Shown here: positions 25,678-32,846 of the stretch, piece after piece | How the letters are laid out: each line of letters starts with the position of its first letter | How positions within the stretch are numbered: the stretch's first letter is position 1 | Source of the DNA: a candidate division LCP-89 bacterium B3_LCP | GTDB lineage: Bacteria; Electryoneota; B3-LCP | Direction of reading: 5' to 3' | Assembly: GCA_005223185.1 (NCBI GenBank) | Contig: NJBN01000002.1 | Span: 1 to 64,000, forward strand | Length of the DNA stretch: 64,000 nucleotides | The notes under the pieces: generated by a model | Databases searched by the model: none | Told to the model about the DNA's origin: nothing | What the model saw: only the letters and a program-made list of their open reading frames with translations | Made by a program: the position numbers and the translations under genes

Positions 25678-25698
25678 TTGTGATGATCTGCATCACAA
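25678..25698. promoter_or_regulatory. Candidate FNR/CRP-family operator
   Basis: A 21-base palindrome: TTGTGATG, a 5-base centre, CATCACAA. It contains TGAT-CTGC-ATCA (25684-25695), the core layout of FNR-type sites. It is centred about 31 bases upstream of the receiver gene's -10 edge. A second site with the same core lies upstream of the GtrA-family gene. Confidence 0.5.
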
Positions 25699-28071: not shown

Positions 28072-28926
28072 ATGAATGATATAACTCAGGTAAAAATCTG
28101 CCGCCACCAGGACTGCCGCTATAAAGCGTTAGCTCTTGCTGAATACTGCTGGTTCCATCTGGAGAATAAGAGACATTATCGCGGAGACCTTGAACTGCGA
28201 GTGGAGATGGGAACGGACCTAAGTGGAGCAAATTTAGCTGGCGCCGTTCTGGAAAAAATCCGCCTGCCCAATGCGAAGTTAGCACACGCTGATCTTTCCG
28301 GCGTTCGCTTCGCTTCTGTTGATCTATCCGGCGCTGATCTTTCCGGCGCGGAGTTGCATGGAAGTGATTTACGATCTGCACGTTTACTACGCTTGCAGGG
28401 GAGTGGGGCGCGTTTCGAAGGCGCTTTTCTAAGTGGCTGTAACTTTGAATACGCCCAATTGGCTGATACCAATTTCTCCCATGCTGACCTGAGAGGAGCA
28501 CAATTTACAGGCGCTTCACTGTACCAGGCACGAATGGATTTTGCGGTATTGGAAGGCGCTGATTTCAGTAACGCCGATCTTTCCTTTGCCATATTGGGTG
28601 GTGCTCACGCTTCTGATGCCATCTTCCATGAAGCGGATCTTTCCCGTTCTAACTTAGTCGGAACGGATCTCGAACGAGCAAATTTAAGTGGCGCAAATCT
28701 TTTCTATGCGCGCCCCGGCAGAGCTAAACTTCGCAAGGCAAACCTGACCAATGCCAGGCTGGAAAGAACGATCTTCCGCGAAGCCGATCTCACGGAAGCA
28801 AAATTGGTGAAAGCTGACTTGAGCGGCGCCGTGCTGGAACGTGCCATTTTAGAGGGTGCGGACCTTAGCGATTCTAACCTTGGCGCTGCTAATATCAACT
28901 GCGCGCTTCTGTCGGATGAGGTATAA
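28072..28926 (+). CDS. Pentapeptide-repeat protein with N-terminal zinc-knuckle motif
   Basis: 284 residues, no signal peptide. The N-terminus holds C-X4-C-X10-C-X2-H (CRHQDC...YCWFH), a likely small zinc-binding knuckle. From about residue 48 to the end runs an almost unbroken series of classic A(D/N)L-X-X pentapeptides (about 45), predicted to form a regular beta-helical rod. Such proteins can mimic DNA or act as scaffolds, but nothing here identifies a partner. No convincing ribosome site. The next gene follows at once, its ribosome site (GAGG) lying in the last codons of this gene, so the two are probably co-transcribed. Confidence 0.82.
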   Translation: MNDITQVKICRHQDCRYKALALAEYCWFHLENKRHYRGDLELRVEMGTDLSGANLAGAVLEKIRLPNAKLAHADLSGVRFASVDLSGADLSGAELHGSDLRSARLLRLQGSGARFEGAFLSGCNFEYAQLADTNFSHADLRGAQFTGASLYQARMDFAVLEGADFSNADLSFAILGGAHASDAIFHEADLSRSNLVGTDLERANLSGANLFYARPGRAKLRKANLTNARLERTIFREADLTEAKLVKADLSGAVLERAILEGADLSDSNLGAANINCALLSDEV

Positions 28927-28927
28927 C

Positions 28928-29488
28928 ATGATCATCGAACATTTTCTCCTTTCAGTAAACGAAACCAATAGTTACATCGTTGCGTGCAGCGAAACGCGTA
29001 GTGCAGTAATTATCGACCCCGGCGAATGGAGTCCGCAAATGGCTGAATTTGTCAATCAACAGGAACTGGAGGTTGAGTCAATATTGATCACGCACGCGCA
29101 TTATGACCACACAGGCGGTGTTCAGGCTTTAAGAGAGCAATATGCTGGAGTACAGGTTTATAGCCATGCAAGCGACGATCTGAAGGATGGTAACGTATCA
29201 GATGGGGACGTTTTGGAGTTAGGCAAATTGAAAATCAGAGTGTTCGAAACGCCAGGTCATACCGATGATTCGATCACTTTCGTGGTGGGATGCGATGTAT
29301 TCTGCGGTGACCTGCTCTTCGCCGGATCGGTGGGGGGGACGCCTGACGATGAACATTTTTATGAGGAAATTAAGTCTATTCGCGAAAAAATAATCCCTTT
29401 AGGTGATGACATGTTAGTCCATCCCGGTCATGGTCCCGCCACCACTATAGCCATTGAGCGTTTATATAATCCTTTCCTGATGACCTGA
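28928..29488 (+). CDS. MBL-fold metallo-hydrolase, glyoxalase II-like
   Basis: About 186 residues starting MIIEHF, with the metal motif THAHYDHTGG (His56, His58, Asp60, His61), ETPGHTDDSI, DLLFAGSVG and a last histidine in VHPGHGPATT. These are the complete zinc ligands of the hydroxyacylglutathione hydrolase group. The length matches the short bacterial form without the C-terminal substrate domain, so glutathione-thioester specificity is not implied. Its start is set by GAGG at the end of the preceding gene. Confidence 0.88.
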   Translation: MIIEHFLLSVNETNSYIVACSETRSAVIIDPGEWSPQMAEFVNQQELEVESILITHAHYDHTGGVQALREQYAGVQVYSHASDDLKDGNVSDGDVLELGKLKIRVFETPGHTDDSITFVVGCDVFCGDLLFAGSVGGTPDDEHFYEEIKSIREKIIPLGDDMLVHPGHGPATTIAIERLYNPFLMT

Positions 29489-29542
29489 TCAGAATTTGAA
29501 AGAGCAGCCCTATCGCTATCTGGACAGATGTTTGTTGAAAGA

Positions 29543-29554
29543 TGATCTGGATCA
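29543..29554. promoter_or_regulatory. Candidate FNR/CRP-family operator upstream of the GtrA-family gene
   Basis: TGAT-CTGG-ATCA. Its centre is 34.5 bases from the edge of the TATATT at 29578-29583, hence about -41.5 from the expected start, the classical class II activator position. The -35 hexamer is not consensus, as expected for an activated promoter. Confidence 0.5.
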
Positions 29555-29577
29555 CGATACCTTATTGGCTTTATAGA

Positions 29578-29583
29578 TATATT
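29578..29583 (+). promoter_or_regulatory. -10 element of the GtrA-family gene
   Basis: TATATT, with a predicted start near 29590 and a leader of only about 20 bases. Confidence 0.45.
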
Positions 29584-29608
29584 ATCTAAATTATCTTTGT
29601 GAAACCTG

Positions 29609-30043
29609 ATGAAATTGCCCAGCAGACTAACGGTAAAACTTTTCCTGAACTACATCTGGATAGGCGGGCTGGCGACAGTAGTGGATACTTTCGCGCTACT
29701 GGTGTTCCGTGTCAAATTTGGAATGTACGTCTGGCTATCTGCGGCTTTGGCTTACGCCTGTGGTATGGCAACGAATTTTGTTCTGAATAAATACCTAAAT
29801 TTCACTTCCAAGGAAAGGCACATCTTAAAACAAGCCCGCACCTTTTTCATCGTTGCATCCATTGGTTTATGTTTGAAGGCTCTACTGATGGAAGTTTTCG
29901 TCCAGGTAGTTCACATGCGTTTGCTCATAGCGCAAGCTTTCGGTGTTGCCATCGTTATGATCTGGAGCTTCTGGGGACACCATAAAATGACCTTTCGGGG
30001 CGGGATCAGATCATATCTTTCGGATAGATTGAATAAAGAATAA
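29609..30043 (+). CDS. GtrA-family membrane protein
   Basis: 144 residues with four hydrophobic helices. Family features are the N-terminal F.NYIWIGGLATVVDTFALLVF, the conserved YACGMATNFVLNKYLNF between helices 2 and 3, and a C-terminal basic HHKMTFR. GtrA proteins are thought to take part in moving lipid-linked sugars for cell-surface polysaccharide modification. Here no glycosyltransferase is adjacent (a GT-C enzyme lies at 57982), so the pathway is not identified. Its promoter looks FNR/CRP-activated. Confidence 0.85.
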   Translation: MKLPSRLTVKLFLNYIWIGGLATVVDTFALLVFRVKFGMYVWLSAALAYACGMATNFVLNKYLNFTSKERHILKQARTFFIVASIGLCLKALLMEVFVQVVHMRLLIAQAFGVAIVMIWSFWGHHKMTFRGGIRSYLSDRLNKE

Positions 30044-30081
30044 GGGGTATTCCACCAGAGCGGAGTGTGCCCCGATTCTTG

Positions 30082-30130
30082 TTGCGTCAGGTCTTGTCCC
30101 GCGTTAGCAGGGTGTGACCTGACGCTTTTT
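30082..30130 (+). terminator. Rho-independent terminator built from a dispersed repeat
   Basis: TGCGTCAGGTC pairs with GACCTGACGC and is followed by TTTTTATCC on the plus strand. The same arms occur at 24462-24501 without a T-run. A second hairpin (GGGGTATTCCAC...GTGTGCCCC) lies at 30046-30075. Confidence 0.65.
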
Positions 30131-30143
30131 ATCCTTTATCCTT

Positions 30144-32360
30144 TCACTTCAAGTGTTCCTCAAAGTAATCGGCTATCGATTTCATCACGTGCACGTCCGA
30201 TTCATCGCGGGAAAAACCGTGGTTTTCACGTGGATATAGAAGCAGATCGAACTGCTTACCCAACTTGATCAATTTGTCTATCAACAGAATCGTATCCTGG
30301 GAATGCACGTTGCTGTCCTTCATGCCGTGAATCAGCAGTAATTTGCCCTGCAATCCTTCTGCAAAGGTAATCGGTGAAGATTGGTCATAAGCTTCCGGGT
30401 TTTGGTCAGGATCCTTGAACCGCTGCATCGTGTATTCCAAATTATAATTACGCCAGTCATTCACTGCAGCCACTGAACAGCCCACCTTGAATATGTCCGG
30501 TCGTTTGAACATCGCCATATTGGTCATAAAACCGCCGTACGACCACCCCCAGATACCCACATTATTCGGTTTGCCCCAGCCTTCTTCGATGCAATAGTTG
30601 GCGGCATCAACTGCATCGTCCAGATCCTTTCCGCCGGTATGTTGATATATCCCCACGCGCCAGTCCCTTCCGTATCCAGATGATCCCCGGTAATCGATAT
30701 CCACTATAGCGAATCCTTCTTGTGCCAGATAACGGTGAAAACGATCTTCATAACCCCAGGCGGCTTTTTCAACGTTTTGATGATATCCAGCGCCGTGTAT
30801 GTAAACTATCAAGGGCGCTGGTAGCCTGTCCGCACTGGGTAACCACAACTTTGCCGGGAAGGATAAACCATCGGATGTCGGTATGGCTACGTATTGCGGG
30901 CTGAACCAATTGTGTTGGCCGAAAGCCGCAGGTTGAGAAAAGATCAGTCGCTGTATGGTTTCATCAGAGCTAATGTCGCACCAGTACAGGTCGTAGGGAT
31001 TTTCCAGGTCACCGTATATTAGGGCAGCTTTGGAGCCGTCCTCCGAAATCACAAATGATCTGATCCATCCTTTGGCGGTGGTGATGCGCTGCTTTTTTCC
31101 AGATGGCAAATCAGTCTTGTATAAGTGCCGTTCTGATGGATGGTCTTCACTGGAAATAAACACTAATGTTTTCCTATCTTCTGACAGGCGCCAATCGTTG
31201 CTGCCTCCCCATGATCCTGATGGTATCTCCCATTCTCCGGAAGTCAGAGCCTGCACTATCTGACTTTCAGAACCTGTTATGGGAATGGAATAGAGGTGAC
31301 ACCATCCGCTCATTTCCGATCCAAAAATCGCCCGTTTACCCTCCGGACCAAAACGGACGCGCGCCATGTTGCGAGGGATCCATTTGTCATCGCTCTCATG
31401 CCATATAGTGTCAACTTTCCCCGTAGCAACGTCTGCCAGAAGAATATAGCGATCCAGCATATCGCGAAGCATGACTTCGATCAAAAGTTTATCCGATTCC
31501 GGCGACCAGTCTATGGATCGCAGATAGAACTGTTCATCTGATGGTAAATCCATCCATATTGGCACTTTATGCGCTGCTTCGGGGCTCACTATCCCAAGTC
31601 TTATGGCGGGTAATTTGCCACCGGCGATTTCTCTCTGCTGCTTGTGAACTTCGACCTTTTGGGTGGTATAATCAGGAATCAGCATCCTTTCAAAACCGGT
31701 GACGTCGTGTTGCACGAAGGCTAACTTGCGGCTATCCGGCGCCCAGAAAACCCCCCGTAAATAGGTATCGTACGCTCCCGTACCGTTACGTATATCACCA
31801 CTTCCATCTCCGGTTAGCTGAACGATTCTGCCATCCGTTGTCGAAACCGCGAAGATATCGTTACCAGACGTGTAGGCGATCCAATCCCCGGCTTTATTGA
31901 TGGAAAAGTTTCCCTCACCGCCCTGGGTCTGGAAGTGCCTGCTCGTTTCTTCGCCAGCTTTCGCTTTAACGCTGTATAAATCCCCCCTGAATCCGAAATA
32001 AATCCTCTTCCCATCCTGTGACCAGAAAGGCTGCGACAATCCCCAATCGAGGACTCTCTCATCATCCTTTTCCTGCTCGGTGCGGTCATCATCCTCGATC
32101 TCCCATCTGGGTTGATCCTTGAAGTCGGTCAGCCGCTCAATCTTTCCGGAAGTGCTGGCAATGTACAGGTCCCTGAACCTGTTTCCATCCGCATTCCATA
32201 AAAACGCCAGTTTCTTTCCATCCGGCGACCAGGTTAATCCCGAGGGGGGGTAGCCGACGATAAGGGGATGTGTGTAAAGGTCTTTCACCTGGAATTTTTC
32301 TGTGGCAAAACAAGTGGTCGTCAGCAGCGATAGGAGGAAGAAGATCAGTTTCAAGCGCAT
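30144..32360 (-). CDS. S9-family serine peptidase (dipeptidyl peptidase IV/acylaminoacyl peptidase type), secreted
   Basis: About 738 residues. I start at the ATG at 32360, which has AAAGGAAAA upstream and begins a signal peptide (MRLKLIFFLLSLLTTTCFA); the frame is open 45 bases further. Residues about 25-480 are a WD/beta-propeller of the DPP IV or WD40-like type (repeated WSPDGKKLAF, WAPDSRKLAF, WSPESDKLLI). Then comes an alpha/beta hydrolase domain with nucleophile GWSYGG (Ser607), GMKDSNVH (Asp682) and RENHGF (His714). It should cleave short peptides in the periplasm, perhaps feeding on products of proteases such as the C25 enzyme in this window. No sorting domain. Confidence 0.9.
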   Translation of the reverse strand: MRLKLIFFLLSLLTTTCFATEKFQVKDLYTHPLIVGYPPSGLTWSPDGKKLAFLWNADGNRFRDLYIASTSGKIERLTDFKDQPRWEIEDDDRTEQEKDDERVLDWGLSQPFWSQDGKRIYFGFRGDLYSVKAKAGEETSRHFQTQGGEGNFSINKAGDWIAYTSGNDIFAVSTTDGRIVQLTGDGSGDIRNGTGAYDTYLRGVFWAPDSRKLAFVQHDVTGFERMLIPDYTTQKVEVHKQQREIAGGKLPAIRLGIVSPEAAHKVPIWMDLPSDEQFYLRSIDWSPESDKLLIEVMLRDMLDRYILLADVATGKVDTIWHESDDKWIPRNMARVRFGPEGKRAIFGSEMSGWCHLYSIPITGSESQIVQALTSGEWEIPSGSWGGSNDWRLSEDRKTLVFISSEDHPSERHLYKTDLPSGKKQRITTAKGWIRSFVISEDGSKAALIYGDLENPYDLYWCDISSDETIQRLIFSQPAAFGQHNWFSPQYVAIPTSDGLSFPAKLWLPSADRLPAPLIVYIHGAGYHQNVEKAAWGYEDRFHRYLAQEGFAIVDIDYRGSSGYGRDWRVGIYQHTGGKDLDDAVDAANYCIEEGWGKPNNVGIWGWSYGGFMTNMAMFKRPDIFKVGCSVAAVNDWRNYNLEYTMQRFKDPDQNPEAYDQSSPITFAEGLQGKLLLIHGMKDSNVHSQDTILLIDKLIKLGKQFDLLLYPRENHGFSRDESDVHVMKSIADYFEEHLK

Positions 32361-32846
32361 GATAGTAGTTTTCCTTTTATTTCGACATAATCCAGTTAGA
32401 ACCATTCAACCAAGCTGATAAGCACGGAATCATCATTCCATGTTGAAGTACTCCTTCAGATTTACCTGAATAAAACTGCACCAGTTCCATCAAAACGACT
32501 CAACGTACTATGGTTGCAGCCGTTCTGGTTTCAGGTAATTTAAATATCCCACTTTCTTAAGTGAAAATCAATAAATAAGTGTAAAATTTTCAATGGAATG
32601 AACGTGAGGATCCCCATAATGTCACTCTGAGCGTAGCGCTCCAAAGGAGTCCCTATGGGAAAGAGTCTCATTCCTCTTTACCAAGCAGCTTCACCGGTGA
32701 ATATTAAAGCAAAAACTTCAATAAAAATCCCAACTGAAAAACAGCCCCCTCGAACCATTAGTGAATAAATACGCTATTATGTTGTATTATAAAGAATTAT
32801 GAATAAACTAATTGAGAGAAAAATCCCAAAAATAATAAAAAAGGTC

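What the first reader, a model, noticed from the sequence alone, without database searches (positions are those of the whole stretch)
29543..29583. FNR/CRP-type site at about -41.5 of a promoter lacking a -35, upstream of the GtrA gene
TGAT-CTGG-ATCA is centred 34.5 bases from the end of TATATT, hence about 41.5 from the likely start. The hexamer at -35 is CGATAC. This is the textbook class II activator layout and makes GtrA a candidate oxygen-, nitric-oxide- or redox-controlled gene.
Basis: partly seen in the sequence, partly recalled or inferred. Interest (0 to 1): 0.5.

Follow-up and report, generated by a model that had tools for sequence, protein, structure and literature searches.

The report
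CRP-type activator site before gtrA
In an uncultured Zixibacteria-type bacterium, a gene for a small sugar-lipid membrane protein (GtrA) has a promoter that appears to be switched on by a CRP-like activator sitting in the textbook position, probably answering to a cyclic nucleotide rather than to oxygen; this is a new example of a well-known kind of switch.

Summary
In detail: TGATCTGGATCA lies at 29543-29554, centred 34.5 bases before the end of TATATT (29578-29583), without a -35; TATATT ends 25 bases before gtrA. TGAT-N4-ATCA alone proves little: 35 of 40 copies in an 864 kb sample lie inside genes. Three results make the site credible. (1) The gtrA promoter of the nearest relative keeps AGATGAT (7/7), TCAC (4/4) and TATATTAT (8/8) at identical spacing; the spacer (8/22) and flanks have diverged. 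(2) The genome has one HTH_Crp_2 regulator; it and 24 orthologs carry GTSRET(I/V)SR, which predicts TGTGAT-N4-ATCACA. Exact TGTGA-N6-TCACA numbers 35 against 3 controls in six family genomes, 25 of the 35 intergenic. (3) TGA-N6-TCAC-N22-TATAWT occurs 35 times against 6 controls in 41 genomes and recurs at orthologous promoters. Most likely this is a class II site for a CRP-like activator. The oxygen/NO/redox part is not supported: the regulator has one cysteine, near its C-terminus, keeps a CRP-type FGEL...RS cassette, and a class III cyclase is encoded. Ligand, binding and sign of regulation are untested.

The parts
29541..29556 (+). CRP-type operator GATGAT-CTGG-ATCACG, 9 of 12 matches to TGTGAT-N4-ATCACA, centred 34.5 bases before the end of the -10
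   Evidence: conserved as GATGATACAGCTCACC in G001
29555..29560 (+). position where a -35 hexamer would be (CGATAC, 17 bases before the -10): no -35
   Evidence: no sigma-70 promoter with -35 found
29578..29583 (+). -10 hexamer TATATT
   Evidence: TATATTAT kept at the same spacing in G001
29590..29590 (+). inferred transcription start (about 7 bases after the -10), leader about 19 nt
   Evidence: inference from spacing; not measured
29609..30043 (+). gtrA, 144 aa GtrA/DPMS transmembrane protein
   Evidence: N-terminus aligns with the G001 ortholog

Best explanation
The site is the operator of a class II, activator-dependent promoter of gtrA. A dimer of the genome's CRP-like protein (G000:C7:254595-255269, not in the window) binds GATGAT-CTGG-ATCACG where a -35 element would be, touches RNA polymerase, and compensates for the missing -35 at TATATT, giving a transcript with a leader of about 19 nt. 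The signal is most likely a cyclic nucleotide (cAMP or similar) made by the genome's class III cyclase. Shown here: the sequence layout, its conservation in one sister genus, the existence and conservation of the regulator, the enrichment of its predicted motif, and the recurrence of the class II layout. Inferred: binding of this protein to this site, activation rather than repression, and the ligand.
For: Ortholog conservation: in G001 (GtrA 77% identical) AGATGAT (7/7), TCAC (4/4) and TATATTAT (8/8) are kept at the same 34.5 spacing, against 1/5 in the centre of the site, 8/22 in the spacer, 13/37 upstream and 7/20 downstream; such an arrangement arises in 39 of 20000 shuffles of the G001 region. 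G001 has a strong terminator-like hairpin between the MBL gene and gtrA (-21.5 kcal/mol, z -6.5), so gtrA probably needs its own promoter there. Regulator: one HTH_Crp_2 protein in the genome, orthologs at 56-82% identity in 24 of 40 other genomes; of these 25 sequences 24 read GTSRETISR and 1 GTSRETVSR. Motif: exact TGTGA-N6-TCACA 35 against 3 (reversed pattern) in the six family genomes, 198 against 37 in all 41; 12 of the 35 read TGTGAT-N4-ATCACA, where about 2 are expected if the two extra bases are random; 35 of 47 inspected sites are intergenic (25 of 35 in the family; 10 of 12 picked others) against 9.8% intergenic sequence in the own-genome sample. Geometry: -10-like hexamers (at least 5/6) end 26 or 27 bases after the operator in 5 of 42 gene-facing flanks, against 20 hits over the 60 other offsets (0.33 per offset), and in 0 of 34 other flanks; TGA-N6-TCAC-N22-TATAWT gives 35 hits against 6 in 41 genomes, 19 of 30 inspected intergenic, with orthologous promoters recurring: a 94-aa gene in G000 and G001 with its G003 counterpart, and a small Cys-rich protein in G001 and G004. 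Cyclase: PF00211, E=2.1e-23.
Against: The site itself is imperfect (9/12; 7/10 to TGTGA-N6-TCACA), and sites this good are common: at 3 or fewer mismatches 50 intergenic and 394 coding in 864 kb. Around those 50 weak intergenic sites -10-like hexamers do not peak clearly at the class II offset: 1, 3 and 0 at offsets 26, 27 and 28, mean 0.87, up to 3 elsewhere; at 2 or fewer mismatches 0 of 12 flanks. TGAT-N4-ATCA is not enriched between genes. At gtrA the site is found in only 2 of 6 family genomes; in G002-G005 gtrA sits close behind the MBL gene and no TGAT-N4-ATCA site with 0 or 1 mismatch lies in the 260 bases upstream. Genomes without the ortholog (families f4, f8) also have TGTGA-N6-TCACA above control (58 against 12), so the motif is not specific to this ortholog. 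No autoregulatory site of 10/12 or better lies within 320 bases upstream of the regulator in 25 of 25 loci; the best are 9/12. The reversed-pattern control differs in composition from the motif. There are no expression or binding data.
Confidence: 0.72

Rival explanations
1. The same operator and class II promoter, but the regulator is an FNR/DNR/HcpR-type oxygen, NO or redox sensor.
For: CRP/FNR operators look alike; exact TGTGA-N6-TCACA sites in this genome also lie upstream of a [2Fe-2S] thioredoxin-like (NuoE-type) gene and of a glutamyl-tRNA reductase (hemA) gene (families), genes under FNR-type control in some bacteria (recalled). Two orthologs (L037, L040) have clustered Cys in the translated stretch before the aligned start.
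Against: The 225-aa protein has one Cys, at 205; after the aligned start none of the 25 sequences has an N-terminal Cys cluster; helix RETISR, not the FNR type (recalled); Fnr model 38.5 bits against a cut-off of 228; best solved relatives include Crp/Fnr-family chains such as 3d0s, 3i54 and 4byy, which I recall as cAMP-type Mtb Crp and GlxR.
Confidence: 0.12
2. The regulator binds here but represses or acts at another start; the class II geometry at gtrA is a coincidence.
For: At another locus the operator overlaps a promoter-like sequence (L146, by eye), and the position of -10-like hexamers relative to operators varies.
Against: Identical spacing in two genera, no -35 element, and recurrence of the layout at orthologous promoters.
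Confidence: 0.08
3. Chance: the palindrome is one of the many TGAT-N4-ATCA in this genome and no protein binds it.
For: 35 of 40 such sites lie in genes; rank 26 of 256. Conservation at gtrA rests on one relative.
Against: About 0.2% chance of the arrangement in the orthologous region (39 of 20000 shuffles), and the block-wise conservation.
Confidence: 0.08

Closest known systems
E. coli CRP (CAP) class II promoters, e.g. gal (PMC7192510: start of abstract in a listing, and 12 found passages)
   Same: Operator centred at about -41.5 from the inferred start, no -35 hexamer, TGA-N6-TCA core, CRP-fold regulator
   Different: Regulator below the CRP equivalog cut-off (86.8 against 266 bits); preferred site extended to TGTGAT-N4-ATCACA; -10 is TATATT; target is a GtrA gene in an uncultured phylum
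Actinobacterial Crp/GlxR (PDB 3d0s, 3i54, 4byy, 4cyd; identity as Mtb Crp and GlxR recalled)
   Same: Best solved relatives by sequence (E about 6e-29 for several); FGELS...R(S/T) cassette and SRET recognition helix align
   Different: ISRV instead of VNKA after SRET; other phylum; ligand here untested
FNR / DNR / HcpR
   Same: TGAT-N4-ATCA core shared with FNR sites; class II placement common (recalled)
   Different: No cysteine cluster; half-sites fit TGTGAT rather than TTGAT; Fnr model far below cut-off

Membership tests
Class II CRP/FNR-dependent promoter | Operator centred near -41.5, replacing the -35, at a fixed distance to the -10 | tested here: met
   Spacing 34.5 to the end of TATATT, CGATAC at -35, same spacing in G001; the start itself is inferred
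Class II CRP/FNR-dependent promoter | Activation by the bound regulator | not testable with these tools
   needs transcription or reporter assay
CRP-type (cAMP) regulator | cNMP-binding domain plus Crp-type HTH | tested here: met
   PF00027 E=2.2e-23 and PF13545 E=2.7e-10 in one ORF
CRP-type (cAMP) regulator | phosphate-binding cassette GE(L)...R(S/T) | tested here: met
   FGELSVIDGLSRS in the own protein, FGEL/FGEI/FGEM...RS in 25 of 25 sequences, own included; aligns with Crp/Fnr-family chains; role of residues recalled
CRP-type (cAMP) regulator | score above the CRP equivalog cut-off (NF008732) | tested here: not met
   86.8 against 266 bits: CRP-like, not filed as CRP itself
CRP-type (cAMP) regulator | cAMP binding | not testable with these tools
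   a class III cyclase is encoded, ligand not assayed
FNR | four cysteines for a [4Fe-4S] cluster (recalled) | tested here: not met
   one Cys, residue 205 of 225; no shared cluster after the aligned start in 25 sequences; L037 and L040 have Cys clusters only upstream of it
FNR | score above Fnr model cut-off (NF008365) | tested here: not met
   38.5 against 228 bits
DNR/HcpR (heme, NO) | heme binding | not testable with these tools
   no sequence test applied
GtrA | PF04138 domain over the curated cut-off | tested here: met
   82.8 against 26.1 bits

The most novel reading that the evidence does not exclude
A CRP-like regulator conserved across several families of this phylum governs a core set of promoters hard-wired as a TGTGAT-N4-ATCACA-like operator, about 22 bases, then TATATT without a -35, and its targets lean towards surface, secretion and glycan functions (GtrA, a WecG/TagA-type glycosyltransferase, pilin-like and secreted proteins). 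The gtrA switch would then be one entry of a phylum-wide cyclic-nucleotide control of the cell surface.
Probability: 0.35. Interest if true: 0.45.

Novelty: new member of a known kind. Interest (0 to 1): 0.33.

Why it matters
It gives a concrete, testable motif and regulator for a little-studied, as far as I recall uncultured phylum, and shows how a weak half-site motif can be separated from chance by spacing at an orthologous promoter. It also moves the likely signal from oxygen/NO to a cyclic nucleotide. The mechanism itself is textbook.

Tried and rejected
TGAT-N4-ATCA as an enriched intergenic motif: rejected (5 intergenic, 35 coding). GTGAT-N4-ATCAC and TTGAT-N4-ATCAA with up to 1 mismatch: not enriched against letter permutations (ranks 14 of 30 and 15 of 20; with up to 2 mismatches 26 of 30 and 18 of 20); TGTGA-N6-TCACA ranked 1 of 30 at up to 1 mismatch (5 intergenic, 10 coding) and 6 of 30 at up to 2. 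Whole-genome count of GTGAT-N4-ATCAC with up to 1 mismatch (180 against 46 reversed): not relied on, because the reversed pattern has different composition. Class II offset around weak sites of the own genome: inconclusive (1, 3, 0 at offsets 26-28, mean 0.87, maximum elsewhere 3); spacing scan of TGA-N6-TCA to TATAWT in the 864 kb sample: too small. Autoregulation: none of 10/12 or better in 25 of 25 loci (one search had used a wrong start for at least L041, whose locus is cut by its contig, and is replaced). The AT palindrome TAGATA-TAT-TATCTA over the -10 as a second operator: dropped because the ungapped alignment does not keep it in G001. One search printed the upstream regions of L012 and L013 in the wrong orientation; corrected. 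Named relatives by GtrA protein: none found. Papers: no paper in the held library has Zixibacteria together with 'transcriptional regulator' and CRP; one paper has 'GtrA family', CRP, promoter and cAMP, on C. diphtheriae DtxR (listing only). Searches found no paper; some searches were seen as listings only; of PMC7192510 the start of the abstract and 12 found passages were seen.

Counting choices: of the 47 exact sites read, 35 are all those of the six family genomes and 12 were picked by me from other families because they read TGTGAT-N4-ATCACA; the listing was cut, so sites of other genomes were not seen. In one search three loci counted as coding but lying at an ORF start (L154, L167, L196) were kept in the flank set. 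In one search, 30 of the 35 layout hits were inspected; five from G025 had no locus. 'Intergenic' rests on a simple longest-ORF gene map of my own. The regulator reading frames were located by a fuzzy search for the helix (up to 4 substitutions) in loci brought in by whole-protein matches.

Full report
Observation. The palindrome TGATCTGGATCA is at 29543-29554 and TATATT at 29578-29583; the centre lies 34.5 bases before the end of the hexamer. The sequence 17 bases upstream of TATATT is CGATAC, and no sigma-70 promoter with a -35 was found in 29300-29700. The ORF 29609-30043 encodes GtrA (PF04138, 82.8 bits).

Is it more than chance? The half-site motif alone is not. The window has six copies against 1.75 expected, but in 864 kb of the genome (40 systematic 20 kb stretches plus the window) there are 5 intergenic and 35 coding copies, rank 26 of 256. 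The combined arrangement is rarer: 32 of 20000 shuffles of the 130 bp upstream region for a site of at least 7/8 plus a -10 of at least 5/6 at this exact spacing; this number is post hoc.

Independent test in relatives. GtrA was found in 6 of 6 genomes held for the family. In the nearest (G001, 77% identical) the gtrA promoter reads AGATGATACAGCTCACCAT...TATATTAT. Ungapped identity with the window by block is 7/7 (AGATGAT), 1/5 (centre), 4/4 (TCAC), 8/22 (spacer), 8/8 (TATATTAT), 13/37 upstream and 7/20 downstream. The operator-to--10 spacing is identical, and such an arrangement arises in 39 of 20000 shuffles of the G001 region. G001 also has a strong terminator-like hairpin between the upstream MBL gene and gtrA, so gtrA there probably needs its own promoter; the window shows no such hairpin (z -0.43). 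In G002-G005 gtrA follows the MBL gene closely and no TGAT-N4-ATCA site with 0 or 1 mismatch lies in the 260 bases upstream, so the switch is seen in two of six genera.

The regulator. The genome has one HTH_Crp_2 match and five cNMP-binding domains; one ORF has both. It lies next to a ManC-type nucleotidyltransferase gene upstream and MeaB and methylmalonyl-CoA mutase genes downstream. Orthologs at 56-82% identity are in 24 of 40 other genomes. Of the 25 sequences, own included, 24 have the recognition helix GTSRETISR and one GTSRETVSR; the phosphate-binding cassette reads FGE(L/I/M)...RS in 25 of 25; after the aligned start there is no N-terminal cysteine cluster, although L037 and L040 show clustered Cys in the translated stretch before it, which I take as untranslated. 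The own protein has one Cys, at residue 205 of 225. From recalled CRP/FNR rules, R-E-x-x-S-R should read TGTGAT, that is CRP's TGTGA plus FNR's inner T. The closest solved chains are Crp/Fnr-family proteins that I recall as actinobacterial; the Fnr model scores 38.5 bits against a cut-off of 228 and the CRP model 86.8 against 266. A class III cyclase is encoded. No autoregulatory site of 10/12 or better lies within 320 bases upstream of the gene in 25 of 25 loci.

The motif in the genomes. Exact TGTGA-N6-TCACA: 35 against 3 reversed controls in the six family genomes, 198 against 37 in 41 genomes. Of the 35, 12 read TGTGAT-N4-ATCACA, where 1 in 16 is expected if the two extra bases are random. 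Genomes of families f4 and f8, in which no close ortholog was found, also show an excess (58 against 12), so other Crp/Fnr proteins may read similar sites. Of 47 sites read in context, 35 are intergenic: 25 of 35 in the family and 10 of 12 picked from other families. Genes near these sites include DUF3800 genes in G001, G002 and G005 and, behind a 9/10 site, in G000; WecG/TagA-type genes in G000 and G005, though 613 and 472 bases from the site; genes with an N-terminal methylation (pilin) motif in four genomes of family f2; many with signal-peptide-like starts; an AspRS-type gene; hemA; and a [2Fe-2S] thioredoxin-like gene (Pfam for one member each, the rest by eye).

The class II layout. In 42 gene-facing flanks, -10-like hexamers (at least 5/6) end 26 or 27 bases after the operator five times, against 20 hits over the 60 other offsets (0.33 each), and 0 times in 34 other flanks; the window value is 27. 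With a looser -10 (at least 4/6) the counts at 26 and 27 are 5 and 4, and four other offsets reach 4. Around the 50 weak (up to 3 mismatches) intergenic sites of the own-genome sample there is no clear peak: 1, 3 and 0 at 26-28, mean 0.87, up to 3 elsewhere. The pattern TGA-N6-TCAC-N22-TATAWT has 35 hits against 6 controls in 41 genomes, 8 of the 35 in G025; 19 of 30 inspected are intergenic, and some of the coding ones look like homologous protein segments. In the own genome there are two hits: the gtrA site and one before a 94-aa gene without a Pfam match (C7:64888-64928). That gene's counterparts in G001 and G003 have the same layout (the G003 one was counted as coding because a 158-aa ORF lies on the other strand), and a small Cys-rich gene has it in G001 and G004. 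A sample-based spacing control was too small to decide.

Where it comes from. A third named locus with a 76% identical regulator is labelled Calditrichaeota (L218). I place the window in Zixibacteria, by inference from the family mate G002.

Conclusion. The best reading is a class II promoter activated by a CRP-like protein, probably with a cyclic nucleotide. The redox signal is not supported by the only candidate regulator found. This is a new member of a known kind.

Noticed in passing
window 25678-25698: Perfect inverted repeat TTGTGATG-ATCTG-CATCACAA between a response-regulator gene (-) and a hydantoinase/oxoprolinase gene (+), if the regulator starts at a later Met than the longest ORF; it also holds a 10/12 CRP-type site, and a TATATT lies downstream on the - strand (centre to end 31.5, not 34.5).
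   Followed up: partly
window 29574-29588: AT-rich palindrome TAGATA-TAT-TATCTA overlapping the -10; not kept in G001.
   Followed up: partly
G000:C7:64888-64928 (L227): Second class II layout in the genome, before a 94-aa gene without a Pfam match; the same layout stands before its counterparts in G001 and G003.
   Followed up: partly
L141, L191, L193, L205: A DUF3800 gene (MSxLVFxxESRW...; Pfam tested for L141 only) follows a CRP-type site in G000 (9/10), G001, G002 and G005: a conserved candidate target.
   Followed up: partly
L211, L215, L162, L163: Perfect TGTGAT-N4-ATCACA sites 252-281 bases before pilin-like genes in four genomes of another family (f2) of the phylum (methylation motif tested for L211 only).
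   Followed up: partly
window 28072-32405: Order pentapeptide-repeat protein, MBL-fold hydrolase, gtrA is kept in 6 of 6 family genomes; a convergent S9-type peptidase is visible next door or one gene further in L011, L012, L014 and L015.
   Followed up: partly
window 32813-32828: Weak CRP-type site (9/12) with TATAAT at the class II distance on the - strand, in the gap before the S9 peptidase gene; probably chance.
   Followed up: no
L037, L040: Clustered Cys (SCCRRC) in the translated stretch just before the regulator's aligned start in two relatives; meaning unknown.
   Followed up: no
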